Shown piece after piece: positions 224 to 46,885 of a DNA stretch of 64,000 nucleotides. The notes below the pieces were generated by a model. It ran no database searches and was not told the DNA's origin. It saw only the letters and a program-made list of their open reading frames with translations. How positions within the stretch are numbered: position 1 is the stretch's first letter; each line of letters opens with the position of its first letter. Source of the DNA: Styela clava (lineage: Eukaryota > Chordata > Ascidiacea > Stolidobranchia > Styelidae); assembly GCF_964204865.1 (NCBI RefSeq), contig NC_135259.1, positions 13,030,974 through 13,094,973 of the forward strand. Direction: 5' to 3'. The position numbers and the translations under genes were made by a program.

Positions 224-261
224 ACGACGAAGCCCTTTTTGATATGGACGTGAAAAATTGA
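224..261 (+). CDS. Last exon of a small secreted-peptide gene (5' part outside window)
   Basis: A splice acceptor (TTTGTATTTCAG, ending at 223) opens a short exon that, read with one base from the previous exon, gives a tail containing DDEALFDMDVKN followed by TGA at 259-261. Its size, phase (1), acidic character and LFD-x-DVK ending match the last exons of the complete peptide genes at 3,701, 6,777, 10,710 and 46,134, especially the LFDVKRD ending of the first. Signal peptide and middle exons lie left of the window. The assignment rests only on this short exon plus its position 3.5 kb before the array. Confidence 0.55.
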
Positions 262-1740
262 CCAATATTTTATTTCCGGACTGGGAAAACAGACTTCCAT
301 TTTATCATCATTATTTCTCACATGTTGACGAATTTAAACAACTTTTGACTGAGAGCTCTTTATTGAAACACAAATTTCATTGACATTGTTTAAGATTAAT
401 CAAGAACATGGCAGGGGCTCCATAATTTAGCTACTAATTCTGAGTTGTACCATATCTGCTTATTACCTTTTTTTGTATAAAACGCATCCATGTTATCATA
501 GAAGAATAAGTTTAAAATTATTTACTTCCGCGATCTAACATATATAAATTTATTATATTTGACTGTTGCTGTAGTGGATTATAATAATTTTGAATTTTGT
601 TTATATTAATTCAGTTAATAAATTACGGATAATTACCGAGATAATTGATGCGAGTAAGTTATTATTCAACTATTTGGCGCCAATAAAGTATATTTATCGT
701 ACAATGTGAATTAATTTTATGATCAATTATTCTTTGTCGATTACACCTCTGCGTACATTAGGTGTAACGTAAATGTGTTGATTGTGTGTGGAAAACGTAG
801 TCATTATAATTTAATAAAATTCAATATTAAGTGAAAACAATAGTATATTTATCCAATTTTTTAAACTGCTGTTACGAATTTTCGTTGTTATTATATCACA
901 GTAATTTCGGATTTCGCTGATCACAAAAATTTCAATTATCTTTAGTGTTTGATAAATCAGAGATTGGTTGATAGTTGCAGGCTTCAACCATTACAGCACT
1001 ATGATGAGCGCGACGGCGCAATTGATTTTGAACTCAAACTAGATCCCTATATTTGAATACCTTTTTTAATTAATATCACTAATCTCCATTTATTTACTTT
1101 TAAAAAATGATGACTTTTAACTATGGCATTATGATACAAATGTTTCGTTTCGATTTGCAGATCTTTATTCCAGACAAAAGCCTGGAAAACAGGCTTTTTC
1201 ATCCCGCCCAAATGAAAATAAATGACAACAAAACTTGTTTCTTTATGGTACATCGACTTTTATGTTTATATATACGGAAATAAGTTAACTCGAGTGAGTC
1301 TACTTTTAAAATGTTGTTTCTAGGTCCTTTATTTGGAGGTTCAGTTCATCGATATAAATAAGACTACAGGAAGTCGCTATCATACTCGGTATTAAGTCGA
1401 AATATCAGAATAAGCGAGGTTGGCCCATGGTTGAAGAATATTCTAGAAAGGTCTTGACTAAGGTTTCAAAAAGAGAATAAACTTTCGACGTGAAATCATT
1501 AAACTACAGAGAGTAATATATTATTTGATAATTATCTTATATGGTAGATACGTATTATTTGGATCCACTGTGACCAAGGGAGAAAATGCTATGTTGGTTG
1601 GTGCTCATTTATGGTCCACCTGAATCAAGCTATAATAAATTCCAAAAAGTATGCGGTTGGGTATACATGCCCAGAGCTATTTTCGGAGTGAAACATGTAA
1701 TAAAAATGTAAATAAAATCGATGACAAATCAAGTTTCGAG
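262..1740. other. No recognised gene; AT-rich spacer
   Basis: This spacer follows the first peptide gene tail. I see no convincing exon: the short open frames have no splice-bounded conserved core. AATAAA signals near 617-622 and 814-819 could end the upstream gene. Confidence 0.5.
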
Positions 1741-1754
1741 TAATGATGAACATA

Positions 1755-1905
1755 AACACAGTCACCCAACTTTCCATCCCTTTCTGCTTGAACAGCCAAA
1801 TCGTACTGTTGATTTCATTGTTACTTTGGTTTCAATCCATTCTTGGAAACTTTGTACATTCATGTAGATTCCCGTTTTCAGTTCCCAACCGCAGTATTCA
1901 GAGCC
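1755..1905 (-). pseudogene. Possible trypsin-like serine protease C-terminal exon or relic
   Basis: On the minus strand, an acceptor-like TTGTTTTAG near 1,905 precedes a frame reading GSEYCGWELKTGIYMNV and then QSFQEWIETKV. This resembles the C-terminal end of chymotrypsin-fold proteases (a Cys, then G-V/I-Y-x-N-V, then F-x-x-W-I). The frame runs a little further and stops. No exon carrying the catalytic His, Asp or Ser motifs was found at higher coordinates, so this is either a relic or a lone last exon. The opposite-strand open frame over 1,743-2,021 is probably its shadow. Short-motif similarity only. Confidence 0.35.
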
Positions 1906-1909
1906 TAAA

Positions 1910-3170
1910 ACAACGGTTACTGCTAAATACCATCCGCAACTCTGGCAACGCTGACAAACGACAGGTTAAATTATTTTCATGTCTTTTTCGTGGACAGAAA
2001 GGAAATTGCAATCAACGATAACACATTCCTATTTATCATTATCAGCGCCAACTAGAAATATCGTAAAGACGAAAAAAGTCTGGCTGTGTTAATTGCTTTA
2101 CAGTGATAACGCACAGAATAATATCGTTTTGACCGTCAAACCACGATGCGCAACCGTAAAAACGACGCTGTTGATTTTCTGTGGAAAAAATTTCGCATCA
2201 AAAAGTTTTCTCAAATCGGGGAGTATTATATCACTCAAACTTGATCCACTAGTGCCAATAAAATTAAATTCTATCACAAATTCAGTTCTAGCAATAAAAT
2301 GTTTGATGTTTGCATGCGTCCGCGTATAGGGTTGAGTACTAAAATAAGATGTGAGATCATTCTCCATTACTTTTTGTAGAACTGATTCAATCAAGAACAT
2401 ACATTACAATATTATATTTTGCAGCAACAAATATTTTTCTCGATGGCAAATTATTGTCTTATTTTACTGTGTCACCATGAGTTGCGTGCGAGTAGACAAA
2501 GTTGATTGTGAAATATAGTCTAATTGCGAGTAATAGCTGTATAAATTACACAGAATTTAAACTAACGTTAGATAGTTTGCGTAAATCAGTTTTACGTAAA
2601 ATGTAATTTCAATATCTTAATAGCTGGGTTCCAGAATTGCAGTGAGATTTAGGTTCACGATATGCCATTTAAAATTGTTGCAATCTTTATAAGAAAATCG
2701 TCTCCCAAAATTTACTAAAATAATCAGTTTCTTCTTGGAATTTGATGGGTTTCACATCTTGTTTTCCCAATTCTAAAATATGAATTGCGTTTTTGAGTGT
2801 CAAAAAACTACCAGTAGCACATGGCTCGCAATTTCTGTATCAAAATATAAAAATAAAAAAAATTCGCGTAATGGCGGATATCAATCAGATTAAACCCAAA
2901 TTCTCGAAATTTAATTCCGACCAAGATAATTGCTCTCAAACGTACGATATTCCGCTATAAATTTCAAGTACGAAAATTGTGCAAACGTGTCGAAAAATTC
3001 TAATTAAAGATATTTTAATAGATTGAGCCCGTGACGCTGCCTTTTAAAAAGTATAAAGCGGCGAAAGAGATAGGATTATGATGAAGACTCTATATGTAGA
3101 AGAACCATGTTAGAATGTTTAAACTGTTTGGATTTGGGATAAATTTTATACTGGCAATGTACGAAGTTTA
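1910..3170. other. No recognised gene
   Basis: Open frames exist on both strands around 2,093-2,400, but neither shows a recognisable domain or a convincing splice structure. Nothing else is supported here. Confidence 0.4.
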
Positions 3171-3245
3171 CAGTGTTTACATCACAACTTCCCGATAGCG
3201 TATTTGGTTTTGTATGTGTATTATCATCGTTGAAACTTCACTACA

Positions 3246-3280
3246 AGGATGGAAAAATAAATTTTGAGGAATATTTGAGG
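3246..3280 (+). pseudogene. EF-hand-like fragment (DGKINFEEYL)
   Basis: Within a longer open frame (3,173-3,544, no proper ATG) the peptide DGKINFEEYLR matches the second half of an EF-hand calcium-binding loop and the start of its exiting helix. It is preceded by an AG and followed by GT (TTGAG/gtacaa), so it could be a micro-exon or the remnant of an EF-hand gene. The first loop ligands are missing and no partner exon was found. Confidence 0.25.
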
Positions 3281-3700: not shown

Positions 3701-4440
3701 ATGGTATCTGTTAAATTCTGGAGCGTTTTGTTTTTGGTATCCTGGGCTGGTCTTGGATTGTTTCAACCAGCAGAAGGTCTGGACGTCAAACAACTCATCT
3801 CCATAATTAATAAAGCTATTTTCAGTGTTACCAAGATTTTTGAAGCAACGATTAATTCTGATGATAAAGCGAAAAGAAAGGAAAAGAGTAAAAAACAAAG
3901 CAGGTGGAACTATGATTTTCAAGTCATGTTTTTTGTCTACAATTCTTACGAACTTAATTGTATGGATTACTTATCAGATATTGTTTTCTGTATACATTTA
4001 ATTTATGTAATACATGTAAAATTTTGCTTCTGAACTAATTGGACTTTCACAAGCCGTTCCATATTTATGCGCATCAACTTTTATGTAGCGGGGAACTAAG
4101 CTTTGGAAGACACTTAAACATAGTTTATCCATGTATTACGACATGGATAAGATATTACGAGCATGAATTCTCATTTAAATCGCAGTTTATATTCAACGAT
4201 GCCAGTGATTATTTACAAGACTTATGCTTATTATGTTTTTATTGAGTTTTACTTTTCAATAATTTTAGACATTCTCATGACCAAATAAAATGGAGGAAAA
4301 AAAGAAATTTGGACGATTCTTTGGAAAATGAAGGTAAAGAAAAATAGAATTAAATAAAATTTATTTTGAATGTAAATTTACAGAGTTATTATATTTATTT
4401 TTCAGATGTAATCTATCTTTTTGACGTGAAACGTGACTAA
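3701..4440 (+). CDS. Small secreted peptide precursor, array member 1 (100 aa, 3 exons)
   Basis: Exons 3701-3903, 4269-4333 and 4406-4440 join in phases 2 and 1 to a 100-residue precursor. Residues 1-26 form a signal peptide (hydrophobic core, predicted cut after PAEG). Residues 27-50 (starting LDVKQLISIINKAIFSV) form a strongly amphipathic, mildly basic helix, followed by a very basic stretch (KAKRKEKSKKQSR). Exon 2 starts R-H-S and carries a Trp directly before RKKR (77-80), a furin-type site. The remaining 20 residues are acidic and end DVIYLFDVKRD. The order signal - cationic helix - basic cleavage site - anionic tail is typical of host-defence peptide precursors, but also of some hormone precursors; I recognise no named family. 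Exon 1's donor (CAG/gtggaa) is weak. An AATAAA-type signal lies near 4,523. Confidence 0.7.
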
Positions 4441-6776: not shown

Positions 6777-8472
6777 ATGTCTTTCACTAGAAGTTTTACA
6801 TTCGTACTTACAATATGTATTTTGACAAGCGCTTTGTTTAAGACAACGAATGGCACGAATGATCCAGCTCATTTCGTTTATGAAATTGTAGAAAAATTTC
6901 GACCAAGATTTGAGATAGCCCACATGTCGAGGTACGTTTCTGAAATTCACTTGGACAAATATTTATTTACAAATATTTACTGCTGTATTCATATCAATCC
7001 TGAACTGCGACTTGAACTGGAGAACGAAAAAAAAACATTTTTTATTAAAACGGTAGTTACTGGTGCGAGTTTTTACATGAAAAAAGTCATTTAACATTTT
7101 GATACATAAAGTCCCAATTTAAATTTACATCTAACTGAGATACAGGCTACAAAAATTGCAATGAAGTACATGAAGATATATTTGGGCAATATTATTATGC
7201 AAACCAAAATTTGGCTATAAAGATATATTATGTGATATGTTTTGGTTGTTAAAATATTATTTCCATTTGATTTGAAGGAGTAGCGTACCTAATTTCTGCT
7301 CCATTCTCTTCGTATTTGTGTTGTACATTTCGACTGCAAAAAGAACCGAACCGACTATGATGATTTGGTCAAATTTTTACTCACAACTTTTGTAAACTGT
7401 AGTATGACAGAACTTTGTGAAAGTCGGTTGCAAGACCTTCAAAGCACCCACCCACATATCATATTTATTATTCTATATATAATATTCTACAAGGCAGCAC
7501 CATTGCTACATTTCTTACTAAGTCCTAAATTTGAGCCATTCCAATATTTTTACCCATCAAATTTTCTTTTCTTTTACCTGTATCACTAAAATTAATTTTT
7601 TTTCTTTTCAAAGGCACTCGGTTCGCAGTAATATACTATGGACATTTGCGGGAAGCAATTCAGGTGACAGTAGCGACGACGGTAAGTGTACTGGTGTTAA
7701 ATTATAAAATCGTTATCAAGCGAAAACCTGCAATATCGAAACTTAACAATTATATGCCGTGTGAAACTGAAATATTTTGTATATTCGTAAAATTTGATTT
7801 AACAGGGGATAAATAATGTGAAACATCGATAGCTGGATTGCGTTTCGTCGTCTTTTTTGGACACGGAATGTACATATGGATTGTCCTGTTTTCTCTTATT
7901 GTTATGAAAAAATCGCTTTTTCCAATAACTACTGGACCAAATTGGTTTAAAATTTTCATCGAGGATTATATTTTTACTAGAAGACTATTACTGTTATTTT
8001 TTTCAATTTTTATGGGCTCTACGGAATTCATATTTTGTTTGCGATGATGTCATCAAAAATTGCCTACCTGTGGTAATTAGTTGTGAAGACTGCCGCACCG
8101 GTAGTCCACTGTAAAAGATTGCATACCTGTACTACTTCGTTTTGCTCTTCGTGTTTATATATTTGGTCATCGCTCTTTTGTTTTCAATACAATTACTATA
8201 CAAACCCAATGAATCATAGTTGTATATTGAATAGTACAAGTATAAAAATTATACTTCAACCCTGCTGCGGGTACAAAAGTCAAGTATATTTAACTTATAT
8301 TTAAACTATAATTGTGAAATTGCCTCATTTCATGTCCATACGCATATAATTATATGATAAAGAATGTTTATATTTGTGACGTAGTACGCGCCGGTTTGTG
8401 TTAGTGGTAAAATGTACTGATTTTGCTTATGTTACAGAAGTTGGAGATCTCTTCGATGTCTTTGAGGACTGA
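6777..8472 (+). CDS. Small secreted peptide precursor, array member 2 (85 aa, 3 exons)
   Basis: Exons 6777-6931, 7614-7681 and 8438-8472 join in phases 2 and 1. Residues 1-26 are a signal peptide ending TTNG; residues 27-51 form the middle segment (TNDPAHFVYEIVEKFRPRF...); exon 2 begins R-H-S like its paralogues and keeps the conserved Trp (in ILWTF), but the basic cleavage motif that follows in the other members is replaced by TFAGSNSG. The acidic tail ends EVGDLFDVFED. Intron 1 starts GTACGTTTCTGAAATTC, nearly as in member 3. The ATG immediately follows a strong acceptor (TTGCAATACCAG), so a leader is probably spliced on. Intron 2 is longer than in member 3 because it holds a repeat (7,826-8,185). 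AATAAA signals at about 8,504 and 8,513. Confidence 0.72.
7826..8185 (+). repeat. Interspersed GTACCGGTA-family repeat, copy 2 (in an intron)
   Basis: Lies in intron 2 of array member 2 and is absent from the homologous intron of member 3. That intron is 433 bp instead of 756 bp and passes almost directly to the shared TTGTATATTGAATAG segment. It shares with the other copies the phrases TGGACACGGAATGTACATATGG, ACTAGAAGACTATTACT, GTGAAGACTG-CCGGTAGTC and GTGTTTATATATTTGGTCATCGCTCTT. The paralogous intron acts as an empty site. Confidence 0.55.
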
Positions 8473-8619
8473 TAGCAATGATACTTTATATGCAATTATT
8501 CCAAATAAATCCAATAAAATTATGCATCTTGCTGCTCTGGTATTCATTTATTCTTTCGGCGCACGAGCCACATTGATCAGAAGAAGACATTCAAGATAGA
8601 CATTTATTATTTGTTGCAG

Positions 8620-10709: not shown

Positions 10710-11922
10710 ATGTCTTCCTATAACTATTTTAAATTAGCATTTATGATATGCTGTTTGACAATTACAATGTTTGAGTCAACGGATGGTACATATCCAACTT
10801 ATTACAGAAAATACATTTATGAAATGGTATCAAGAATGTCACGATATCAGATAGCTTATTCGACAAGGTACGTTTTTGAAATCCAAATGAACAAATATTC
10901 AGACCTTATTATACCAATCCTGAACTACTGCTGCAGTTGCATCAATCACTCTGTAAACTAGAATGAACAATTTTGCGTCTAAAGCAGTATCGATGCAGAT
11001 GCCAACCGAAATTTTACTATAAATATTTGATATGCTTCAGTTGTGCACTCAAATATAATTTATTTGGTCTATTGGGGTAGCGTACCTAGCTAATACTCCT
11101 TTCTCTATGCATCTGAGTGAGTGTCTGTGTTCTGGCTGCTAGGATGCCACAGTAAGACGTGAAACAGCTGTATTGAATGTAGTTCAAATAGGTTGGTTCA
11201 CGCTTTCACACAACATTGCTGTAAAATTTGCTGTAAAAACTTGGATAAATAAAGTGTGATGCAAGATATTTGAACGAGCATTCAATGAATAGTTTGTGTT
11301 ATTCTATATATTTTACAACTCATAGACATCGCTATATGTTGTAACTCTTGAATTTGAGAATAATTTTTAATTACTGTTCGTAGGCACGCCAGTCACAGAT
11401 TTGGGCCTGTGATATGGAGGTACAAAAGAAGCGATCCAGATGAAAACATCGACTATGGTAAGTGTAAGGATGTTGAATCTTCATCTAGCGATAATATATA
11501 TTCAGATATTCAAAAATGCTAAGCCTTACCTACAATATTGAAACTAATCAGTTAGTTATACGCGACATGAAACTGAAATACCTCAAATTTATTTCATTTT
11601 GAATGAACAAATTTAAGAGCAACATAACATTTCGTCGACCGAGTTTTCAAAATTCATTCTAATTTCCAAATCCCAAGCATTACAATTGTATATTGAATAG
11701 AGAAAATATGAAAGATATTTTTACCTAGGATATACAAAAGGCATGAATACTCACCCTATCATTTACTATGGTAAAGTTTTCATATTTCATGTCCGTACAA
11801 ATAAAATTGAATATTAAAGAACGTGCATTACTGACGAAGTATGCGCTGATTGATGTTAGTTATAATCAAATTTATTTTTTGTTGTTACAGATGTTGCTGA
11901 TCTCTTTGACGTCGAAACGTAG
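10710..11922 (+). CDS. Small secreted peptide precursor, array member 3 (87 aa, 3 exons)
   Basis: Exons 10710-10867, 11384-11457 and 11891-11922 join in phases 2 and 1. Residues 1-26 are the signal peptide (ends ESTDG). Residues 27-52 are Tyr- and Arg-rich (TYPTYYRKYIYEMVSRMSRY...). Exon 2 starts R-H-A-S-H and has Trp64 directly before RYKR (65-68), a furin-type site. The last 19 residues (SDPDENIDYDVADLFDVET) are strongly acidic. As in member 2, the ATG follows a pyrimidine-rich acceptor (CATAATACCAG). Introns and 3' UTR align with member 2. AATAAA near 12,138. Likely secreted and processed in the secretory pathway; function unknown. Confidence 0.75.
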
Positions 11923-13429: not shown

Positions 13430-16400
13430 TCAAGTCCAATTGAATCTTTTATTAATAATTTCAAACAATTCTTCGTTATATTTGTTATAAAACTTTTTCA
13501 AAGAATTTAATGTTTCCTTGCTCATCATATCAGAAATTGTTTTGTTTCTTGTTGTGCCTTTTGTGTCCGCTAAACATTGCACAGCATTGTCTTTTCTATG
13601 TACTCTTATACAATGATATCCCTTCGCTTTGTCAAACACAATATCTCTTTCATCAACTTTAATTTCCAATCCCAAAAATTTCTGTGTGTCCTGTACAACC
13701 TTGACTGGATCGGTTAGAAGATCTTCACCATTGATGATGTGAATTTGTTCCAACGGAAAGTATTTCAACCAGTTTTTCAGATAAACAGAATAGATTCCAG
13801 TATTTAGTATTGTAAGATAATATCTCGAAGATGACCAGCTATTTAAGATCTGTTCTTCAATTGATGGGAAATATCGACGTAACACTCTTTCGTTTTCTTT
13901 TATATATTTTAAAACATCTCTCACGAAATCATCAAAGTTAGACGGCGCTGGAATATTTTTCTGTGCAATGATAAAAGAAGGGTTATGCATCCTACCGCGA
14001 ATGTAGCAATTTTGCTACAACTTTACATTGAATGTTTTTGTTTAATGAAATAGTGTTATGTTTATATAAAGAATTTATATTGAAGAGTTAGCTATTTGTA
14101 ATATAAGTAAGATATTTGTGTTAGATATTCGTGAGACTTTTAGACAAAATTGATGATGAAATATTGGAAAAATAGAATATTTCACTTACTCCATTAGAAA
14201 AATTAAAATTATCAATGCGAACTTATTTTCAAACTTTAGATGGGACACATTTGATGGTCAGAAATGATTGTCACAATAGTTGTGAATATTCCATTTTTTT
14301 TTAATAATTGTATCATCAAATGATATCGTTTTATATATGTTTTCAGACTGTATGTTTCTTAAAAGATATTGGTTTATAACAGAATTCCCACTTCAATATA
14401 GTAATCTACAGATATGAAGGTTGAAGTACCTGGATTCTTAGAAGACTCTTCATGGTTCTATGAGATTCAAAATTAAAATCCGAGTACGCTCTTTTGATAG
14501 GATCACAGACAACTAATATTAATTTCATATTTGGATTCATTCGTTTTACATTGAGTGGAACATCTCTCAGCACGAAATATCTTGGCGACTTTTCCATTGT
14601 AATTTCATGTGGAGCAGTATAGGGCATTTTTGATCTTAAAAATGTGTATTTGATTTAGTTTATAGTAAGTTATTCAAAATTGACACAAAACGCATGCGGA
14701 GGACTTTGAGGCATATATATTTCAATAAAAACATAACGATACCGCTTTGATATAATAAATATTCTGTGGTCAGATTAAGATTTATAGGCAATAGCGTGTT
14801 ACGTACTAGAACATTGTTACAATTTTTATTCGATTCATAAATATAATTTATGACATCAAAGAGTGATTTCATAGCTTACCTGTAAAACTCAGTACCTTTT
14901 TTGTAATCACTTGTGTCGAAGAAATGAAGTTCAGGGTTATTAGGTAAAACTATATCAGGATGTAAGTCTAAGAATCTCATTAATGCAGTCGTTCCGCATT
15001 TCTTGACTCCAATTCCTAAGACCTGTTAAAATATGTGAAATAATTTCTGTTCGAACAGCAACGTGCTTTGTTATCCTAATTGAAATCCATAGCTCTGGTG
15101 AGTCAAACCAGATCCGGTAATTCGTTAAAAAAATACATTCGGATGATTCGTTCATGATTTCTCCCCACATTGTAATTAGAATTATATTAATCGGATAAAA
15201 TGTCTATATAGACCAATAAAACTTTTTTCAGGCTCATTGAGGCTTGGTTTTATGATATTGTAATCCCTGTGTGACTGTGACTAAATTACATATAAACAAA
15301 TATGTTCTTGAGTTTTTATATCGTCCTAGAAAACTTCGGAAGAATATTAGTCATTGAACAAAACACGTCAATTTACCAAAAGTTGTACTACAAATTGTAG
15401 ATAATTGAACACGGAATGACCTATCGCTCATTTTGTTTTTATTAGAAGAAGCATTTGTTTATGTATTTTGTCGTTGGGCTCTCTTTTCTTGATCACCTCA
15501 TCCATTTAACCGAATAATAACATCAAAATTGACAAAATGTATCATCCTAATATATCGATGTTGATATTCGTATGTGTAACAAAACATTTCAATTTGTAGG
15601 TAAATGTGAAGGCACAAACACTTGCCCTATAGACTTATCTGGTCTTCTAGTGTGAGAATAAAGCAATTTGGTTATGTTTGGGTTTATCTATTGATGACAA
15701 ACAAAATTGCTTGTTTGAACAACTAGAATGCAGTAGTATAATCTCACTGCTTTTTCATTCGTTCGTAATATCGTATAGTCATTATTCATACCTTTGGTAA
15801 ACGTTTTTCATATTTATATCCCATTTTTCTTATTTGAAGTTTTGATGCTTTTGTAGTGAAGTAATGAACATTTTTATTGGCAACCTGGTAACAAATGACG
15901 GTATGAGACGTGAACAAATTAGAAAAATATATCGCTTGAAAATTTTTGCGATCTTTTAAAACATGTTGGTTGCTGTACGTGCATATTTTGAAGAGCATAT
16001 TCTACCTTCAAGCCAAAACTATATTCAAACTGTTCCAGGTATTTGCGTCTGATTTGTTATTGGACACGTTTAGTGGCCATAACGATCGTTTCAATATTAT
16101 GTTGTTGTTGTTCTTGTTCTTTGACACGTTTTTAAAAAATCGCTTTTCTCTTCGAATACTGGACCAATTGCTTTGAAATTTTCAGTGGTTAAAGATTAAT
16201 TTCTTCGCTAGAAGGCTATTACTTTTATTTATTTCAAAATTTTGCGTGAATTCTATGAAATTTGATATTTCGTCTAAAATTTTGCTGTATTATTTTTTAT
16301 TCATGGGAACACGGATTTTAGTCAGTGTCATGACTGGCTGTACGTTTTGATTCTGCAAAATTCTTGCTACTGGAAATTCAGAACTTATTTGAGGGTACCG

Positions 16401-18369: not shown

Positions 18370-20488
18370 TTATAAAAATATTTTTACATTTGTTTGATTC
18401 GATTTCATGTCCGTTTTCCGTTTTTTCTCATCAACCTTTGAATCCATCTGAAAATAGTAATAAACATTAAATTTTATATTCTACAAAAAACGCATATGTA
18501 AGTGACACAAGTCACTTACGAAAATTTCAGTTTATTTCAAAAGTTATTGGTTACCTTATCCCACCAGTCCAACGACAGTCTTTGTTCTGCATACTTGGCA
18601 AAAGGAATTTCGATTTCCAGAGGTGGTGTCTCCTTTGAAAAGTGAAATAATTAGTCTGCTTTATCAAATGTTCATTGATTTAAAATATTAAATATGAATG
18701 CTAAAATGCTTGATTAGAATTAAAAATACAGAATCGAATCTTCGTGCAACACAGTGGAGAGATTAAAAAATTGTGTACAATCAGATAAAACATCTGGTGA
18801 ATTTGATTATTTTGACTAAATGCTAAAATGCGAAAAATATACTGACGTCATCTAAGGAGATGCCATCTTGTCCAAAAAGGTTGGGATGTCGTCCCGGTGA
18901 CCCGAAATCAGGTATGAATACTCCATCCTTGTCAATAATGCCTTTGTAAACAGAAGGTCCAGGAACATTCGGACCTTTCAATGCCAAAAGAAGACCAACA
19001 TCTATCTCGTATGGTAAGAAGCAAAGAAAAATCTGAATAAAAAGTAGTAAGAAGCTTATATGGTGAGAATTATGGATATTGAGAACACAATTAATAAATA
19101 ACTACAAATAGTGTTATATAGTTTAAATGCAAAAACTACACTAACGTCATCGAGGGAGATGCCATCTTTTCCAACAGATTTTGAATGTCGTCTCGGTGAC
19201 CCGAAATCAGAAATGGATACTTCGTCCTTGTCGATAATGACACTGCGGGCAGAAGGTCCAGGAACATTTGGACCGTTCAATGTCGAAAGAAAGTCGTCAT
19301 CTAGCTCGTCCGATGAGCAGCAAAGAAAAATCTGAATGAAATGTAGTAATGTAATATTGGTATTGCAACTATTGTATAATCATCTCACCAATATCTATAT
19401 CATCTTACCTTTCGTAGTAGTCTTCCACACCGATGTGAAAAATGTTTTGTCTTCGACTTGGCCTGAAGAAGTAGTGAAGCAATCTGTACAATTTAGAAAG
19501 CATGTATATATAGTTTATATGCCTTGTGGTCATATTCATATTACACACACGGGGAAAACTAGAGAAAAATGATTATTAGGTCGTTCCATCAATAACTAAA
19601 TTATGTTGTAAGGAATTCAATTTGGCATTCGGGTTCCTTTTAAGATCTGATTAAAAGTATTTACTCAATTGGTTCCTGCACGAACCGGGCACCATAAACA
19701 GGGTGTCCAGAAAGTTGCGGCCGATTTCATAACATTACCAATTGCAAATTTGAATAAATTTTGTTGTATGATAAATGGGGACTACAGAATTCAACATCTA
19801 TAACATCCAATTAGAAACAGGTTGACTATAGATCTTTTTTGAAATTAAAAAAAAGAACATTTGATAATAAAGTTTTTATGATAGGGCGAAACTTTTTGGA
19901 CACCCTGTTTATATATTGATAAATATAGTAGTTCGTATTGCGCGATAATGAATCGTTACCGGTGGATGAAAACTATTATACATACGTACAATAACATTAA
20001 AAGTCTATAACGAGAAACGAGATCACCAAAGCAGAATATATACCACCGAAATCTTTTTTTTTGACGACGCTAATTTGAAGGAGGCATTAGGAGACAAAGT
20101 GGTAATTGTCGAAGTGTAAATAACAATGAAATTTAATGGTATCGGGCATTGGTAATAAACGCACTGATAGTTGCAACCAACCATAATACTTTATCACAAC
20201 GTTTAAAAACTTTTGCCTAAAAACAATGCTTGGAGTAATATAATTAATTCTAACCTTCCGATTTTCACGAGCGCGGACTTTGCTGAAAAACTTCGCAATC
20301 TTTTTCAATGAGCCATTTTCTCGACGGCGACTCTCCTGCTTCTCCTGGAGGCAGGCTCTCATCTTGTTTTTATTGTTGTTTTCCATATTCATAAGCAATA
20401 TAAACCCGAAAGATACAAGTTCCAAAATGATTTGGTTGCTTGCGATTCTCAAATAGGAATGATTTTCCTTAAATTGCAATTTTGTCAA
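18370..20488 (-). CDS. Unknown protein with tandemly duplicated 62-residue exon (about 278 aa, 6 exons)
   Basis: Exons (minus strand) 20488-20255, 19483-19409, 19331-19146, 19032-18847, 18632-18555 and 18447-18370 all join in phase 0, with good GT/AG sites. Exons 3 and 4 are both 186 nt and paralogous: each begins IFLC, contains GPNVPGPS, then IIDKDx-V and DFGSP-x-RH, and ends DGISLDD. Exon 1 encodes a hydrophobic stretch followed by a basic Lys/Arg/Glu-rich segment (KIAKFFSKVRAREN); exon 5 is ETPPLEIEIPFAKYAEQRL...; exon 6 is a Lys-rich tail ending in TAA at 18,370-18,372. I do not recognise the family. The start is uncertain: the first ATG of the frame is used, and MENNNKNKM further in is possible. 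Further upstream exons cannot be excluded. Confidence 0.6.
19697..19909. mobile_element. Mariner/Tc1-type MITE (213 bp)
   Basis: Ends in 12-bp perfect inverted repeats (AACAGGGTGTCC ... GGACACCCTGTT) flanked by TA on both sides, the target duplication of Tc1/mariner elements. Inner terminal sequence is also nearly complementary (AGAAAGTTGCGG / GCGAAACTTTTT). No ORF. It lies in the first intron of the minus-strand unknown gene. Confidence 0.75.
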
Positions 20489-22582: not shown

Positions 22583-23922
22583 CAGGGATCACCAACGCGT
22601 TGCCCGCGGGCACCAAGTCGCGAAGACCATATGAGTCGCCCGCAGGTCTGTTCCAAACTAAGCTTAATAACGGCTCTTATAAGTAAGCTACATCAATTGA
22701 ATTTTGTCCTGCTATATTAGTATAAATCACACTTATATTGGAACTAGAAATTATTGTAACCATCAACCTTATTTTTATTTGACCTCAGTAATGTGACGGG
22801 TCAATTAACACTCTTCCAATTATGACATCACACTGAGATCACTTTCCACGAACCCGCGCATTGTCTTGTCCGTTAGTTAGCGGAGCAGTAATAATACAAT
22901 TATTGATTCCAAAGAAAAATCCATCATTTTCGCGATGAATGGGAGGTGGATATATTTATACCACCACGAAAACAGCCTGCGTGTGTCTCATTAGTGGGGC
23001 GATTTTAACGACGGCAAAGCGGAGAGATATTTCACATCTTGTCACGTAATCTTCCGCGCTAACTACCCACTGGTCAGCACAGTACGGACAGAAAAAGCTT
23101 GCGATTCAAACCATACAGCAATCCTATTTTACGAGACCATCGTTTGTTTCAACCTATCCTTTCGAATCAACATTTTTGACATAAACTCAGGATAGGAGGA
23201 GATATACATATTTATCCCGGGGAGAAGATAGCCGATAGGACGGCTTAATCATATGACAAACCACGGCTTCTCGCCGGTTACCATTCGATGTCGGGTATTG
23301 AATTAGTTAGTTATTTGTTTCCATAAGCCTGCACTTGATGGCGAAGGAAGCCTTAACCGACCAGCGGTTACGTGAACCACCCTACAGCGGCGAGGAGTCC
23401 AGCAATCCTTTCGCACATATCTATCCCCGCATAGGATTCTAACCTGCGAACCTAACGCCTAACACGATGGGCCATAGCGCCGCGACTCGCTCCACCAGGA
23501 ACAAACATGGAACACGCTTCACTGATGAAAATCTGCAAGACTTGCTCAGAGTTATAGTGTCAAGTTACACGTCGGAGTATAATACTCAGCAACATTTGAT
23601 TGTACAACTGTTAAGTCAATTTTATCTTAGACATGTGCAGAGTGTTGAAAATCAGTTTGAAAACACTCAGTTTTGAAATACAAGTGTTATTGATAGAAAT
23701 TTATTTGCAACGTTGTGATAATCGTTTGATTTCCTGAAGAATCCTAAAGTTTATTAATGTCTATACTTCACTAAATACCAGTAATTATATCAATAATTGA
23801 AGCTTAATCGAGCAACTGATTTTTTTAGATGTACATTTTTTAGTGTACATTGAACTGGTAGCCCGTAGCTTAATCTGTACCCAAAAAGTAGCTCTCGGCT
23901 TCGAAAAGGTTGGGGACCCCTG
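22583..23922. mobile_element. hAT element relic with decayed BED-finger transposase (1,340 bp)
   Basis: Flanked by an exact 8-bp direct repeat CTGTACAG (22,575-22,582 and 23,923-23,930), with inverted ends CAGGGATCACCAAC and GGTTGGGGACCCCTG. Internal pieces read like a hAT transposase: EWEVDIFI and CVCLISGAILTTAKRRD (BED-type finger region), QQSYFTRPSFV, and near the 3' end RFTDENLQDLLRVIVSSYT (the transposase C-terminus). Frames are broken and most of the catalytic core is missing. A tRNA-derived SINE sits inside. The right-hand portion from 22,917 is copied again at 25,940-26,945. Confidence 0.78.
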
Positions 23923-25939
23923 CTGTACAGCGTACACACATTTCAAATTATCATCAGCAAAAAAATATATATGTTTTGTTTTAATCCGTTCTTTACATCT
24001 CACAATTCAGATAGAATTGTTGTGATAAAGTCTGCATATTCTGCAAGAAGCACGCGCTTCTCTCCATTATGTTTCCGTTTCTGACTGAAACCGAAATCTC
24101 ATTTTCATTGATTGATCTTACTTGCCCTGGGCTGCTACATAAATTCTGAGATAAATTATAATGCGACGGGTTGTTTTTGCCTTTGAGACAGACTTTGATG
24201 TGCTGTAAAACATGTACAGTTTTTCGAATATACTTTTCAAAAAGACCAAGGGACTGATATTGAGTAATTTGTATGGCAAAAAATCAGATATTATAGTTGG
24301 AGCGCGTTATAGAACGAGGTTGTAGAAAATCGGAAATTGGATAAGATTCCAAAAATTATTTAACATATGTTTTCACCTTATCCAATATTAAGCGATGTGC
24401 AAACGCTTATTACCACCTTTGAATGTTTGAGGGTTCAATCAAATTTCATTCAACGATATCGTTACCTCACAAATTACGTCCCATGGTTGATTCATAAACC
24501 ACGGACATTACATTTCATTTCATATTCCAAGGTAGCTTTTCACAAAAGTTAGTAGTAATGTATTGTTTATTCATCCACAAGTCTTATAAAAGGCAATATA
24601 ACAAGGGACTAAACATCATTTGAAGTTAACGTTTGGTCTATGTTTATGGTATACTACTTGATTTTAGACAGGCTAAAATTGTTATGTCTGAGGTTTGTTT
24701 AACAATGTAATTGCAGCAGGCTGTAGTTCAAAGACGAAGCAGCGTTGGATAATCGATGAAAGGAAATAAGTATCCGGAATGTGATAACTGTAGTACTTCG
24801 ACTTGATGTTTTGTTTTTCAGTCGTGCATAAGATTTTGATTTTCAGTCTTGCATACAACTATTTTGCGATGTTATATATATAAAGATATTCAGTTACATT
24901 TCGTGTAAGACGCATTTCCCAACTCAAGCACGATAATAAGGTTAAGATGATATATCACAGATTCACACTCAGAAGATATAGAAAGAGGTTACTTCAACAA
25001 GTTAAATTTTTGCTTTAGTTACTCTAGTATATATATATATTTTCTATGTATGTCAGAAATAGAGGTTAACACGCTAGCAAAATATAATCAATCGATTATA
25101 GATTATTAGACATTAAAACTGAATTTAATAATGAAACTTGAAGATTATCTGAGTCAGGTGGGATCGTTTGGACTCTATCACAAACGTATCTATGCAATAA
25201 CATTCATTGCTGCTATACCAAACATCTTTTTCACTCTTCATTTTCTATTCGCAAATTTTCAACCGGATTTTCGTTGTGATTCTTCTCATCATTTGAATGG
25301 ATTATTTCCAAACGTAAGCGATTTTATAGTTCAATACTTCATTATCTTACAGATAAGGGGTCTTTCTAATATTATATGAGAAGGAGGTCATTCAATCGGT
25401 GCCATATATCCACCGGTGTTTCAAATTGTTCTATCGCTCAAAAAATTAAAATTTGAATATTTTATTATTTATGGCATTAGATGCTTATAAACTGTTTATC
25501 ATAGAAATAAAAAAAGGGATTATAAATAATAAACTATTCAAAATCTCATATAATTCGATTACTGGAAATGGCCTTGACAACTTCAACTTTCCTGTCCCAT
25601 ATTTCAATCCCACTGCATGTAATGTTTCTAACTAAAAGAGAATGGAAGCGTTTCTGTGGTTGATCTCGTTTAGTTGAGTCATGCTCTGAGTAGAATTTAG
25701 TAAAATAAAACTACATGAAACAATATTACTACTTGACTCTTGATTCGTAAAGATAAAACTGCTTTTTAATATTTTGTATTTAGATTACCAGCGAGCACAA
25801 CTTCGCCATTGTCAATTCCACGGCATACCTTGAACAAAACGTTACTGGACTTAATCAGTGCTACACACCGTTACTCGCAACTAGTGATGGAAACAAAACA
25901 AATAGTAACGCTTCCACAATATTTGTTAAATGTCAAAAC
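22917..25939. repeat. 3,023-bp tandem duplication, unit 1
   Basis: All landmarks recur at a constant offset of 3,023 bp (for example 23,467/26,490, 25,131/28,154, 25,453/28,476). I saw no substitution or indel between units, even across the TA microsatellite near 25,030. The unit spans the right three quarters of the hAT relic, the SLC22 upstream region, SLC22 exon 1 and most of exon 2. The junction near 25,939 lies in a short A run, with one base (C) fitting neither parent sequence. Confidence 0.92.
23195..23490 (-). mobile_element. tRNA-derived SINE nested in the hAT relic (copy 1)
   Basis: Read on the minus strand from about 23,490, the element has a tRNA-like head: GGCGCTATGGCCCATCG-TGTTAGGCG resembling an A box, then GGTTAGAATCC resembling the RNA polymerase III B box (GGTTCGAATCC). 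A GC-rich body follows (GGATTGCTGGACTCCTCGCC, GGTGGTTCACGTAACCGC). It separates two pieces of the hAT transposase, so it inserted later. Exact ends and target duplication were not resolved. Confidence 0.6.
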
Positions 25940-25940: not shown

Positions 25941-28900
25941 AATCCATCATTTTCGCGATGAATGGGAGGTGGATATATTTATACCACCACGAAAACAGCC
26001 TGCGTGTGTCTCATTAGTGGGGCGATTTTAACGACGGCAAAGCGGAGAGATATTTCACATCTTGTCACGTAATCTTCCGCGCTAACTACCCACTGGTCAG
26101 CACAGTACGGACAGAAAAAGCTTGCGATTCAAACCATACAGCAATCCTATTTTACGAGACCATCGTTTGTTTCAACCTATCCTTTCGAATCAACATTTTT
26201 GACATAAACTCAGGATAGGAGGAGATATACATATTTATCCCGGGGAGAAGATAGCCGATAGGACGGCTTAATCATATGACAAACCACGGCTTCTCGCCGG
26301 TTACCATTCGATGTCGGGTATTGAATTAGTTAGTTATTTGTTTCCATAAGCCTGCACTTGATGGCGAAGGAAGCCTTAACCGACCAGCGGTTACGTGAAC
26401 CACCCTACAGCGGCGAGGAGTCCAGCAATCCTTTCGCACATATCTATCCCCGCATAGGATTCTAACCTGCGAACCTAACGCCTAACACGATGGGCCATAG
26501 CGCCGCGACTCGCTCCACCAGGAACAAACATGGAACACGCTTCACTGATGAAAATCTGCAAGACTTGCTCAGAGTTATAGTGTCAAGTTACACGTCGGAG
26601 TATAATACTCAGCAACATTTGATTGTACAACTGTTAAGTCAATTTTATCTTAGACATGTGCAGAGTGTTGAAAATCAGTTTGAAAACACTCAGTTTTGAA
26701 ATACAAGTGTTATTGATAGAAATTTATTTGCAACGTTGTGATAATCGTTTGATTTCCTGAAGAATCCTAAAGTTTATTAATGTCTATACTTCACTAAATA
26801 CCAGTAATTATATCAATAATTGAAGCTTAATCGAGCAACTGATTTTTTTAGATGTACATTTTTTAGTGTACATTGAACTGGTAGCCCGTAGCTTAATCTG
26901 TACCCAAAAAGTAGCTCTCGGCTTCGAAAAGGTTGGGGACCCCTGCTGTACAGCGTACACACATTTCAAATTATCATCAGCAAAAAAATATATATGTTTT
27001 GTTTTAATCCGTTCTTTACATCTCACAATTCAGATAGAATTGTTGTGATAAAGTCTGCATATTCTGCAAGAAGCACGCGCTTCTCTCCATTATGTTTCCG
27101 TTTCTGACTGAAACCGAAATCTCATTTTCATTGATTGATCTTACTTGCCCTGGGCTGCTACATAAATTCTGAGATAAATTATAATGCGACGGGTTGTTTT
27201 TGCCTTTGAGACAGACTTTGATGTGCTGTAAAACATGTACAGTTTTTCGAATATACTTTTCAAAAAGACCAAGGGACTGATATTGAGTAATTTGTATGGC
27301 AAAAAATCAGATATTATAGTTGGAGCGCGTTATAGAACGAGGTTGTAGAAAATCGGAAATTGGATAAGATTCCAAAAATTATTTAACATATGTTTTCACC
27401 TTATCCAATATTAAGCGATGTGCAAACGCTTATTACCACCTTTGAATGTTTGAGGGTTCAATCAAATTTCATTCAACGATATCGTTACCTCACAAATTAC
27501 GTCCCATGGTTGATTCATAAACCACGGACATTACATTTCATTTCATATTCCAAGGTAGCTTTTCACAAAAGTTAGTAGTAATGTATTGTTTATTCATCCA
27601 CAAGTCTTATAAAAGGCAATATAACAAGGGACTAAACATCATTTGAAGTTAACGTTTGGTCTATGTTTATGGTATACTACTTGATTTTAGACAGGCTAAA
27701 ATTGTTATGTCTGAGGTTTGTTTAACAATGTAATTGCAGCAGGCTGTAGTTCAAAGACGAAGCAGCGTTGGATAATCGATGAAAGGAAATAAGTATCCGG
27801 AATGTGATAACTGTAGTACTTCGACTTGATGTTTTGTTTTTCAGTCGTGCATAAGATTTTGATTTTCAGTCTTGCATACAACTATTTTGCGATGTTATAT
27901 ATATAAAGATATTCAGTTACATTTCGTGTAAGACGCATTTCCCAACTCAAGCACGATAATAAGGTTAAGATGATATATCACAGATTCACACTCAGAAGAT
28001 ATAGAAAGAGGTTACTTCAACAAGTTAAATTTTTGCTTTAGTTACTCTAGTATATATATATATTTTCTATGTATGTCAGAAATAGAGGTTAACACGCTAG
28101 CAAAATATAATCAATCGATTATAGATTATTAGACATTAAAACTGAATTTAATAATGAAACTTGAAGATTATCTGAGTCAGGTGGGATCGTTTGGACTCTA
28201 TCACAAACGTATCTATGCAATAACATTCATTGCTGCTATACCAAACATCTTTTTCACTCTTCATTTTCTATTCGCAAATTTTCAACCGGATTTTCGTTGT
28301 GATTCTTCTCATCATTTGAATGGATTATTTCCAAACGTAAGCGATTTTATAGTTCAATACTTCATTATCTTACAGATAAGGGGTCTTTCTAATATTATAT
28401 GAGAAGGAGGTCATTCAATCGGTGCCATATATCCACCGGTGTTTCAAATTGTTCTATCGCTCAAAAAATTAAAATTTGAATATTTTATTATTTATGGCAT
28501 TAGATGCTTATAAACTGTTTATCATAGAAATAAAAAAAGGGATTATAAATAATAAACTATTCAAAATCTCATATAATTCGATTACTGGAAATGGCCTTGA
28601 CAACTTCAACTTTCCTGTCCCATATTTCAATCCCACTGCATGTAATGTTTCTAACTAAAAGAGAATGGAAGCGTTTCTGTGGTTGATCTCGTTTAGTTGA
28701 GTCATGCTCTGAGTAGAATTTAGTAAAATAAAACTACATGAAACAATATTACTACTTGACTCTTGATTCGTAAAGATAAAACTGCTTTTTAATATTTTGT
28801 ATTTAGATTACCAGCGAGCACAACTTCGCCATTGTCAATTCCACGGCATACCTTGAACAAAACGTTACTGGACTTAATCAGTGCTACACACCGTTACTCG

Positions 28901-28962
28901 CAACTAGTGATGGAAACAAAACAAATAGTAACGCTTCCACAATATTTGTTAAATGTCAAAAT
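25940..28962. repeat. 3,023-bp tandem duplication, unit 2
   Basis: Second unit, continuous with the rest of the SLC22 gene. Its hAT fragment ends at 26,945 followed by CTGTACAG, and the nested SINE copy lies at about 26,218-26,513. Unit 2 ends in exon 2 at the AATGTCAAAA run, where the true exon continues with TAAATGG. Confidence 0.92.
26218..26513 (-). mobile_element. tRNA-derived SINE, duplicated copy
   Basis: Same element as at 23,195-23,490, shifted by 3,023 bp; it arose by the segmental duplication and not by a second insertion. Confidence 0.6.
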
Positions 28963-43804: not shown

Positions 43805-43888
43805 ATGTCTGGAACAGATAACGCTGTCAGTCAAAATAATTTACGTCTCTGTAAACGGAAATTTCGAGAGATCAAGGGTGTAGCTAAG
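43805..43888 (+). CDS. Possible orphan first exon (28 codons)
   Basis: An ATG at 43,805 opens a basic, Met-Ser-Gly-starting peptide with LRLCKRKFREIKGVAK, ending at a plausible donor (GCTAAG/gttaac). Composition resembles coding sequence, but I found no partner exon within the following 2 kb and recognise no family. Confidence 0.2.
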
Positions 43889-43889
43889 G

Positions 43890-46133
43890 TTAACAAGAAT
43901 TCATCATTTTTTTTTTACTTCAAATTTTCGAAAAGGGAGTTTCTTGTATTTACCAAATATAAGTATTATTTCAATAATTTTCCTCATTAACAAATACATA
44001 AAATTTAGATATAATTCAAAATTATTTGATTTCATACAAGGTTTTCTGAATAAAAGATAGGTACAACTTTTTCTTGATCTAAAATACCAATTTATGTTGA
44101 AAAATGCTGTTTTCAAATATGATTACAGTAAAAAAGAGAAAAATTCTCCAATTAGTCACACATTAAAAATTTCAAGTTATGATCTGGCGACAACATCATA
44201 ATTTATGATTTGCGAGGAGCGACAAAAAGAGAATTTTGGTATTTCTTGACAACTTTAATGCATCGAAATACACTTAAAATATTCAATGAGTCAATATTTA
44301 TCAGACTTTAGGGGACCGAATTAAGGTTTATGAAAAACCGTTGAAATAGACCCCTTTTGATAAATTGTGTTCAATCAAAATATTTAGCTCAAAAAAATTG
44401 ATCGCAAACATAGAAATAACTAGTTTCTTTAAATTCAAGCAATCCAATTAGCTTTGAGAATTTTTTAACGAAATAAATGCTAAAATTGGCAACGCTGTGG
44501 TTTGGTATATATGTATTTGTTTATTGGTACAATGACCATAGTTTTTCGTAAAGAATTTAACTTTTTCAGAAATGTATTTTTCTGCACAATCATGTAAAGT
44601 CGAGTGCCGCCATTTGAAAAAATACAGACCAATGCAATATCCCCTCGATGCGTATTTATTTGAATGAGAATAACTGGAAATAAATGAATATATTTTTGTT
44701 TACTTAATTTATAACGGAAATCTGACGTCAAATACCCCACCCATCCATACATTTCGCTTTTTGTGGTAAACAAAATTGGCGAAAATTGCAACATGATGCA
44801 GTTATATTTTAAGATATAATAGGTTAAAAATATCACAATGGTTTCGGAGAAATTCATTAAACGAATAAACATTTTTTAACTGGCAGATAGATATTTTAAC
44901 AGATTTTTTCTAAAATTGATATTATGAAATAGCAAACTTCAAACTAAGTAACCTATTCATTTTTGAGAATTTTTTGGAGATTGAAAGTGAGGCAAAAAAA
45001 TAGGTTATTAAACCAAAAAAAGTCTACAAATTAAATTTACGTGGTTTGGGAATATCAAAAAAATTACTGATTATCCTGCGTTGCCTTAATCAGTGTTAAC
45101 TAAATACAATTGTAGGACAGATTCCAATATATTTTATTTGCATTTACTCAGAATTATTTATTGGACGTTTACAAGTAACCAAATTATCATATATATGATA
45201 AGAATTTCAGCCCAAACTGTCGGTTCTTGGACGGTTTCGGGAAATTCGATTTTTGCCTATCTACGAAGAGTTTCCATATTTGTATTGTTATTTTTCTGCC
45301 AAAGTGACTATAAGTATATATAAACGGAATGAACGAAATATTGTGATTTCCCATCTTTGTTACGTAATACCGGAACAATATACTAGCGGCAGAGTTATGC
45401 AAAAACTTCTTACGCGATGTGTCTGGAAAATGCGGGACGACGGGTTTGTTATTGGATATAATTATTTTGTCAATCTTTCAACGTATCATCAATAAAAAGG
45501 TTTCGTGAAAAATAATAAAAAAAAATAATGTTTCAATTTCGTGAAAAAATACGGATATCTTTTTGAAAAATAAATTGAAAGCAATGCACGTGAAAAAGTA
45601 TTACGCAACGCCTTTTTTCCGTATTCATGGGTTCGAAAAGCTATAAATAGTCTTGGATAGCGAACGATATCTCATATACGAATTTTGCTGAGTATCACAG
45701 TATGATCTGTGTTGATCTTTTCGTGGTCTTTGCAAAATATTGTCTGGTATGCATTTAACTATGTATATAGCTGTATTCGAAATGTGTGGCTGTCGCCTCA
45801 GCGTATTTGAACGTCCGATGTTACTTCAGATTTTTAGTATCACCATTATAGATACTACCAAACCTTTTTATATAAAATTCATCATCAACAATTAAGAGCC
45901 ACGTTGGCCAAATATCATTTGTTGTTCATAAAACAAATAATTTTGAAATTGTTGAATCGTTTGACCATTCTTATAGAATAATATGAAACGATGTGGTTCG
46001 TTAACACGTATAATACTAAAATAGTTGAACCACAATAAAAAGGAAAAAATATTACAGCATTATTTCTCTAAATCTTTTCATTTTACAGTTTATTTAAAAT
46101 ACCAATTTCTGTGTAACAAAAATTGATCACAAA
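43890..46133. other. Spacer without recognised gene
   Basis: AT-rich. Open frames at 44,480-44,872 (minus) and 45,093-45,495 (plus) have no domain signature or exon structure that I can support. Confidence 0.4.
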
Positions 46134-46885
46134 ATGAATAAGTGCACACAGCTAGCTCTTTTGTTGTTGGTATGCTGCATTCTTACGCTGACAACAACTG
46201 TCGAGTGTGCCCAAACACAGGGCGAAAATTTGGCAAGAAGGTATATAAACAAATAATCTTATTTCTTAATTGAGTGTAATTTTTCGATGAAGTTGATGTT
46301 CAAATCAACAGCATCATTTTACAAAAATGAATTGAATAAAACTTCTTCGGATTCATTTTGTCAATAGAAGCATAGAATAAAATGCTGATTACACAAATTT
46401 TAAATAGTTAATTCATAAAGATTATTTACCTATTTCAATTCGGGTATTTAAGCCACATTTGAAAAATTGAGATGAATTTCTAGTTATGATTATTCATTAT
46501 ATCATTACTGTTTATTGTTTTTATTATTATGCACTCTTTTTTTTAATAAAGACATCGTACTAGTGGCACCTGGAGTGGGCTAGTAAAACGTGATCTCCGA
46601 CGTCAAGAAGAACTGGAAACGCTTGATGGTAAATACTTTAAGATTCCATATATAGTTATATAAGTTTCATTGAACAAAGAAATTGGTTCAGCAGAAATAT
46701 TATATTCAAGATGTGATCGTAAAACCAATTAATACAAGTTTTTGTATTGGTCTGCGCGATCTAAATAAATATTTTGTAACATAACAATACGAGTAGACGA
46801 ATTTACTTTTATCTAATTTTGAAATAATCCCTAAAATTCCACAATGAAACTTTTTGTTTCAGATATCGTCGACTTATTTGAATAG
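46134..46885 (+). CDS. Small secreted peptide precursor, dispersed member (68 aa, 3 exons)
   Basis: Exons 46134-46240, 46552-46628 and 46863-46885 join in phases 2 and 1, the same structure as the array genes 35 kb upstream. Residues 1-25 are a signal peptide (LLLLVCCILTL core, ends VEC). The middle segment is short and basic (AQTQGENLARRHRTSGTW...). Exon 2 again starts R-H and has a Trp shortly before LVKR (46-49), with RR at 53-54. The acidic tail ELETLDDIVDLFE ends in TAG at 46,883-46,885. The last exon encodes only six full codons plus a split one. AATAAA at about 46,963. It is the most divergent member: the region between signal and Trp is about half as long. Confidence 0.68.

What the first reader, a model, noticed from the sequence alone, without database searches (positions are those of the whole stretch)
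224..46885. An unrecognised family of small secreted peptide genes with a fixed three-exon design
Four complete genes (3,701; 6,777; 10,710; 46,134) and one terminal exon (224) share: signal peptide on exon 1; phase-2 intron at a conserved Arg; exon 2 starting R-H with a Trp and usually a basic cleavage site; phase-1 intron; and a tiny last exon for an acidic tail with D-V/I-x-x-L-F-D/E. Exon architecture and tail are conserved while the middle segment varies freely (different length, charge and residues). That is the pattern of rapidly evolving defence, venom-like or signalling peptides whose acidic tail keeps the cationic part inactive. I recognise no named family; the functional reading is inference.
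Basis: partly seen in the sequence, partly recalled or inferred. Interest (0 to 1): 0.88.

Follow-up and report, generated by a model that had tools for sequence, protein, structure and literature searches.

The report
Sea squirt antimicrobial-type peptide gene family
A sea squirt carries a small, mostly unannotated family of genes for secreted peptides that keep the same short acidic tail while the active-looking part changes freely, and its gene layout most resembles that of the animal's known antimicrobial peptides.

Summary
The window is Styela clava, C13. The four complete three-exon genes and the tail exon lie where stated. The tail at 224 belongs to a fifth gene, E, whose first two exons lie just upstream of the window; gene F lies 4 kb upstream, on the other strand. 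Two more genes with the same tail exon and intron phases, G and K, lie 1.8 kb apart on C3. In 134 kb of C13, 6 of 6 such tails sit on complete genes; 700 random sequences gave none. Gene A is NCBI LOC120338467, 'uncharacterized'; B-G were not found among 5.8 billion proteins (K not searched). Best reading: precursors of antimicrobial-type defence peptides with a removable acidic tail. The styelin gene in this genome shares the phase-2 first intron in a basic codon followed by His, but has a different second intron and no detectable similarity; clavanin differs more. Activity, expression and cleavage are inferred, not shown. A new variant of a known kind.

The parts
224..261 (+). Gene E, terminal coding exon (DDEALFDMDVKN*); exons 1 and 2 lie upstream of the window at C13:13030377-13030522 and 13030684-13030751
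3701..3903 (+). Gene A exon 1: signal peptide and first part of cationic region; ends in phase 2 (AG|gtggaa)
   Evidence: protein identical to NCBI LOC120338467
4269..4333 (+). Gene A exon 2: R-HSHDQIKWRKKR basic site, then acidic stretch; ends in phase 1
4406..4440 (+). Gene A exon 3: acidic tail DVIYLFDVKRD*
6777..6931 (+). Gene B exon 1: signal peptide and first part of the peptide; phase 2
7614..7681 (+). Gene B exon 2: R-HSVRSNILW..., no basic site; phase 1
8438..8472 (+). Gene B exon 3: EVGDLFDVFED*
10710..10867 (+). Gene C exon 1: signal peptide and first part of cationic region; phase 2
11384..11457 (+). Gene C exon 2: R-HASHRFGPVIWRYKR, then acidic; phase 1
11891..11922 (+). Gene C exon 3: DVADLFDVET*
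46134..46240 (+). Gene D exon 1: signal peptide and short pro-part; phase 2
46552..46628 (+). Gene D exon 2: R-HRTSGTWSGLVKR, then acidic; phase 1
46863..46885 (+). Gene D exon 3: DIVDLFE*

Best explanation
These are precursors of antimicrobial-type host-defence peptides of the sea squirt Styela clava. Each gene makes a short secreted precursor: a signal peptide, then a usually cationic segment of about 24-54 residues that carries a Trp and no Cys (A-G, hand-placed cuts), then an acidic tail, 17-20 residues in A-F and 42-45 in G and K. A proprotein convertase of the furin kind would cut at the basic site in front of the tail (RKKR, RYKR, RSKR, KRKRR, RKRR; KR in D) and free the cationic peptide, which would act on microbial membranes. 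Until then the acidic tail, whose end is fixed on its own tiny exon (mostly D-V/I-x-x-L-F-D/E), would neutralise or chaperone the cationic part during storage. Shown: exon structure, shared tail exon, charge pattern, local gene duplication. Inferred: secretion, cleavage, tail function, antimicrobial activity, blood-cell expression.
For: Eight genes with one exon grammar. Net charge of the part before the tail +10, +1, +8, +4, +7, +11, +11 for A-G and of the tail -5, -8, -8, -6, -6, -11, -12 (hand-placed cuts); K +18 and -17. The same tail exon sits on K, whose middle is Arg-rich (PHPPILRRRFFRRRIIVPWRRRIFRRRFFRRRIFRGR), and on G, which is Pro/Trp/Arg-rich. K resembles in composition the Ciona peptide KH.C7.94 (SRRRFDFSRRRIYVARRRSLAFAHRRR; MIC 6.25 uM on E. 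coli, S. aureus and yeast, negative on P. aeruginosa; PMC7387483, parts 1-3 of 5 of the text read). Signal / cationic / anionic is the usual precursor order of the Ciona candidates there. The styelin gene in this genome has its first intron in phase 2 inside the mature peptide, in a Lys codon followed by His, like the Arg-His boundary of A-D. Styelin-like genes on C4 also show a phase-2 donor candidate after exon 1. B and C are a local duplication.
Against: No expression, peptide or activity data. B is only +1 and has no basic site. The hydrophobic moment is above 0.4 only in A, B and C; D, E, F and G are at 0.25-0.33, so an amphipathic helix is not a shared trait. Arg-richness is no guarantee: four Ciona segments, among them Arg-rich KH.C1.365, KH.L63.9 and KH.S1007.2, had no or weak activity (PMC7387483). 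Ciona, styelin and clavanin precursors are said there to be cut before acidic residues, not at basic motifs, so processing here would differ from the known ascidian kind. No similarity to styelin was detected: none of the 18 hits is in the C13 cluster or near G and K. The second intron of styelin is phase 0, not 1. The gene A model is a single-sequence fold of weak overall confidence (pTM 0.29).
Confidence: 0.65

Rival explanations
1. Signalling peptides: precursors of short peptides cut out between basic residues (for instance HSHDQIKW, HASHRFGPVIWRY, THKIPIIW), acting as cytokine- or neuropeptide-like messengers.
For: In A-F exon 2 encodes a short segment from the boundary Arg to a Trp, followed in A, C, D, E, F by a basic site; Arg and Trp are the only invariant residues between the start Met and the tail's L-F in the 6-gene alignment. 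Ciona blood cells release such a peptide, CiEMa (PMC10888236, passages read).
Against: No C-terminal Gly for amidation before the basic sites, no repeated copies in a precursor, segment sequence not conserved between paralogs, and G and K have Arg-rich middles without that short segment.
Confidence: 0.17
2. Secreted peptides with another job, such as tunic or egg-coat components, metal or DOPA chemistry, whose charge pattern is for packing in granules.
For: Signal peptide-like start and charge complementarity would fit any granule cargo; expression is unknown.
Against: Arg/Trp-rich composition of G and K and the first-intron setting shared with styelin.
Confidence: 0.1
3. Some copies are decaying duplicates; B in particular, with no cleavage site and low charge, is no longer functional.
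For: B versus C omega about 1.0 in the middle segment; B, C, D, E, F and G not found as annotated proteins (K not searched).
Against: All 8 genes keep open frames, splice sites and intron phases; the part after the Trp differs little at the protein level between B and C (omega 0.33, few sites).
Confidence: 0.06

Closest known systems
Styelins (Styela clava)
   Same: Signal peptide, linear cationic part, acidic C-terminal pro-piece (PMC8659048, passages read); first intron phase 2 inside the mature peptide in a basic codon followed by His; acidic pro-piece split off by a later intron.
   Different: Second intron phase 0 instead of 1; Gly amidation signal instead of a basic site before the pro-piece (PMC8659048); tail TDEEFQEFMQDIEQAREEE without D-V/I-x-x-L-F-D/E; no similarity detected.
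Clavanins (Styela clava, PF05452)
   Same: Cationic peptide followed by an acidic tail; signal peptide before it (PMC8719109, passages read).
   Different: Mature peptide and tail on one terminal exon; PF05452 matches clavanin at 3e-35 but none of A-G or K.
Ciona LCAMPs (Ci-MAM, Ci-PAP and the 'novel family'; KH.C7.94)
   Same: Signal / cationic / anionic order; K and D signal peptides fit the published consensus better than nearly all shuffles (2 and 1 of 2000 reach it); Arg-rich middle of K like KH.C7.94.
   Different: No basic processing motif reported in Ciona (PMC7387483); the consensus test is not specific (a styelin-like C4 signal also gave 1 of 2000); Ciona exon structure not available here.
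CiEMa (Ciona blood-cell peptide)
   Same: Short peptide from a blood-cell precursor.
   Different: Cut at Trp-Asn and Gly-Asp and amidated (PMC10888236, passages read).

Membership tests
Styelin | First intron phase 2, inside the mature peptide, basic residue then His | tested here: met
   Styelin locus L047: K split AA|A then CAT. Window genes A-D: R split AG|R then CAY. Over the 8 genes: phase 2 in 8, basic residue at the split in 7 (not G), His after it in 4.
Styelin | Second intron phase 0 before the acidic pro-piece | tested here: not met
   Phase 1 in 8 of 8; styelin exon 2 ends at a codon boundary and the next exon starts in frame after ...ttaacag (read by eye, the acceptor filter had not listed it).
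Styelin | Sequence similarity of signal or mature peptide | tested here: not met
   Styelin exon 1 against the genome: 18 hits at E up to 1, none in the C13 cluster or near G and K.
Styelin | Gly amidation signal before the pro-piece | tested here: not met
   Basic residues precede the tail in A, C, D, E, F, G; no Gly at the cut; the defining feature is from PMC8659048.
Clavanin (PF05452) | Pfam Clavanin match | tested here: not met
   None of A-G nor K; clavanin locus control 3e-35.
Clavanin (PF05452) | Mature peptide and acidic tail on one terminal exon | tested here: not met
Ascidian antimicrobial precursors (layout class) | Signal, cationic region, anionic tail in that order | tested here: met
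   Charges; B is borderline (+1).
Ascidian antimicrobial precursors (layout class) | Amphipathic cationic helix | tested here: inconclusive
   Best 18-residue helical moment 0.58 (A), 0.41 (B), 0.48 (C), 0.33 (D), 0.30 (E), 0.25 (F), 0.29 (G).
Ascidian antimicrobial precursors (layout class) | Antimicrobial activity of the released peptide | not testable with these tools
   No assay data.
Ciona 'novel LCAMP family' | Signal peptide consensus | tested here: inconclusive
   K 2 of 2000 and D 1 of 2000 shuffles reach the score, but a styelin-like C4 signal also 1 of 2000; G 143, C 302, A 236, B 684, E 1750, F 1610 of 2000.

The most novel reading that the evidence does not exclude
The terminal exon is a modular, conserved 'safety' cassette: one short acidic tail end (D-V/I-x-x-L-F-D/E) kept on its own exon in fixed phase, behind which unlike cationic peptides (helical, Trp-rich, Pro/Trp/Arg-rich, Arg-rich) have been built or swapped on two chromosomes, with the tail as the common silencer or granule-sorting signal. 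That would make the pro-piece, not the active peptide, the thing that defines and moves an antimicrobial family.
Probability: 0.35. Interest if true: 0.72.

Novelty: new variant of a known kind. Interest (0 to 1): 0.56.

Why it matters
Linear antimicrobial peptides diverge so fast that homology searches miss them; here the constant part is a 7-12 residue tail exon, so exon grammar plus tail can find them. It yielded four more genes from one window (E completed, F, G, K), of which E, F and G were not found as annotated proteins and K was not searched. If the tail is the conserved silencer, it gives a direct test of how a sea squirt stores cationic peptides safely, and a list of new peptide candidates to assay.

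Tried and rejected
Genome-wide tail patterns: CAGANRTNNNNKAYYTNTTYGA gave 16 hits against 12 for the reversed control; TTNYAGANRTNNNNKMNYTNTTYGA 16 against 7; TTNYAGANRTNNNNGANYTNTTYSA 10 against 3. Of the 16 hits, 5 are family genes (A-D, G); of the other 11, exons were sought for 3 (on C4, C16, C18) without a convincing gene, and the other 8 were set aside on their tail reading alone. The hits outside the clusters were read for tails and, where the stop came early, scanned for exons, none convincing by eye. The C16 tail DVVYLFDSLLMRRS had no exon 1 candidate and no convincing exon 2. A C13 candidate with exon 2 ANDKDDGLWPKRKRSLTKNDLE and tail ENTIFDFE at 13017114-13017981 was dropped because the likely signal frame upstream showed no phase-2 donor. 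A secreted-looking frame near C13:13014172 (minus) was dropped: no exon 2 was listed with it. The relaxed scan listed 3 of the 6 C13 genes (E, C, F), no new one there, plus G and K. Styelin by the published 20-residue N-terminus found nothing; a DNA pattern gave 1 hit against 1 in its control, and its identity as styelin rests on the decoded protein. The script ended in an error before two styelin loci (L048, L049). PDB profile search of the 6-gene alignment: best E 2. Pfam hits of B, C and E were below cut-off, A, D, F, G none, K none. Papers: 9 of 10 searches used; LOC120338467 is in none; the others listed no paper on this family, judged by titles and abstract beginnings. AATAAA lies within 90 nt of the stop in 6 of 8 genes (not C, E), against 9% of 60-nt and 19% of 130-nt background windows.
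Full report
WHERE IT IS. The SLCO gene at 49665-56837, spliced by hand from the variants, is 100% identical over 704 residues to an NCBI Styela clava protein. The window lies at C13:13030974-13094973 of a 376.6-Mb genome held here. The host is therefore the solitary sea squirt Styela clava, source of the clavanin and styelin antimicrobial peptides (PMC8719109, passages read).

THE OBSERVATION. The four complete genes have the stated coordinates, GT-AG introns, a phase-2 then a phase-1 intron, and open frames. Gene A is stored at NCBI as one 100-residue uncharacterized protein, LOC120338467, identical to the three-exon model. A profile of A-D (118 candidates scored) and one of A-G (520 candidates, E up to 10) found nothing else among 5.8 billion proteins; B, C, D, E, F and G are thus not there as annotated proteins, within the limits of a search that needs shared five-residue words. 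K was not searched there.

OUTSIDE THE WINDOW. The orphan tail at 224-261 is the last exon of gene E: exon 1 C13:13030377-13030522, exon 2 13030684-13030751. Gene F is on the minus strand at 13026992-13026005, 4 kb upstream of the window. A genome-wide tail pattern led to gene G on C3 (minus, 18328560-18327841), read by eye after the automatic exon finder missed its first exon. A relaxed scan gave gene K in the 10 kb fetched around G (plus, 18325242-18326038), 1.8 kb from G. All eight have phase 2 and phase 1. The first 19 bases of the K and C tail exons differ at three positions. K's exon 2 is single in the genome by protein search.

CHANCE. In 133.9 kb of C13, both strands, 6 tails fitted the tail rule and 6 of 6 had fitting exons 2 and 1; 700 first-order random sequences of the same length gave 14 tails, 1 tail with exon 2, 0 complete genes. 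The rule was drawn partly from these genes. MAFFT, given the six C13 proteins unaligned, put the boundary Arg, the Trp and the tail L-F in invariant columns. In the whole genome the tail pattern alone is not rare (16 hits against 12 in the control), so the tail counts only with its exons.

ANATOMY. By hand-placed cuts the part between signal and tail has charge +10 (A), +1 (B), +8 (C), +4 (D), +7 (E), +11 (F), +11 (G), and tails -5 to -12; K +18 and -17. A basic site [KR]x[KR]R precedes the tail in A, C, E, F, G; D has KR; B none; K ends in Arg-rich repeats with no single clear site. Helical moments are moderate in A-C (0.41-0.58) and low in D-G (0.25-0.33). A model of gene A from one sequence is mostly helix (29-98; mean pLDDT 72, pTM 0.29), weak evidence.

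EVOLUTION. B and C are a local duplication with aligned flanks: 5' flank 71% identical, 3' flank 58%, exon 1 68%, exon 2 59%, exon 3 66%, introns 56-62%; the exons are not better kept than the 5' flank. Codon counts between them give omega 1.02 in the middle, 1.22 in the signal and 0.33 after the Trp.

COMPARISON. Two clavanin loci were found by the published clavanin A sequence: mature peptide and acidic tail share one terminal exon and Pfam Clavanin matches at 3e-35, while A-G and K match no Pfam model at its cut-off. A styelin gene was found by a DNA pattern (1 hit against 1 in the control) and recognised by its decoded protein: exon 1 ends ...SVSNFYK in phase 2, exon 2 starts K-H-K-T-Y and ends at a codon boundary, and an acidic TDEEFQEFMQDIEQAREEE follows in frame after ...aatattaacag (acceptor inferred). 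So the window genes share the first intron's phase and, in A-D, its basic-His setting, but not the second intron's phase nor any detectable sequence. AG|G at a donor makes Arg at a phase-2 split common, so the His and the position inside the cationic part carry the weight. Of 18 hits with styelin exon 1, 12 gave loci and 10 were printed (9 on C4, 1 styelin on C10); all 10 show a phase-2 donor candidate after exon 1, among other candidate donors. Four C4 loci (L054, L056, L058, L059) show a candidate acidic terminal exon EFNDFENAQSVEDLE in phase 1, not tied to the upstream exons here. I therefore say 'works like, and may be distantly related to, styelins', not 'is a styelin'. In Ciona the same signal / cationic / anionic order is usual (17 of 22 candidates had an anionic helix), five tested candidates killed microbes and four others, some Arg-rich, had no or weak activity (PMC7387483, parts 1-3 of 5 read). 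That paper reports no basic processing motif in the Ciona candidates and cuts before acidic residues in styelins and clavanins; the furin-type site here is a real difference. Furin in Botryllus blood-cell granules, and conversion of the pro-form outside the cell, are put forward by PMC9966394 (passages read); a chaperone-like role of pro-parts is stated by PMC10608444 (passages read).

VERDICT. A real, small, mostly unannotated family; host-defence peptides of the ascidian kind are the best reading (0.65), signalling peptides next (0.17). Novel in its tail exon, its intron phases and its basic cleavage site.

Noticed in passing
C4:4844732-4970136 (9 hits), C4:7117238-7125128 (3 hits), C10:16312433-16341875 (3 hits); loci L048-L059: Clusters of styelin-like genes found with styelin exon 1 (E from 2e-18 on C10 to 0.2 on C4); C4 ones begin for example GWLGK... 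or GWFRRGWRKIKRG... and show a phase-2 donor candidate. Possibly a large, undescribed set of antimicrobial genes; not searched in protein databases.
   Followed up: partly
window 22941-25915 and 25964-28938: Tandem duplication of period 3023, 100% identical over 2975 bases, within what reads like SLC22-type transporter exons (by recall, not tested); very recent duplication or assembly artefact.
   Followed up: partly
window 13433-14014, minus strand: Exon with a sulfotransferase domain (PF00685, 3e-11) between peptide genes C and D.
   Followed up: partly
window 18823-19379, minus strand: Two similar neighbouring exon-like frames (GPNVPGPS...DFGSP.RH...GISLDDVS) that look like a duplicated exon of an unknown gene; no Pfam match for the one scanned.
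   Followed up: partly
B 6777, C 10710; G and K on C3: The start codon directly follows a splice-acceptor-like CAG in 4 of 8 genes, B, C, G and K, not in A, D, E, F; it would fit a 5' UTR intron or spliced-leader trans-splicing as known from other tunicates (the latter recalled).
   Followed up: no
C13:13017114-13017981: Exon-2-like and tail-like pieces (ANDKDDGLWPKRKRSLTKNDLE, ENTIFDFE) with a secreted-looking frame upstream but no phase-2 donor found: perhaps a broken or differently spliced relative.
   Followed up: partly
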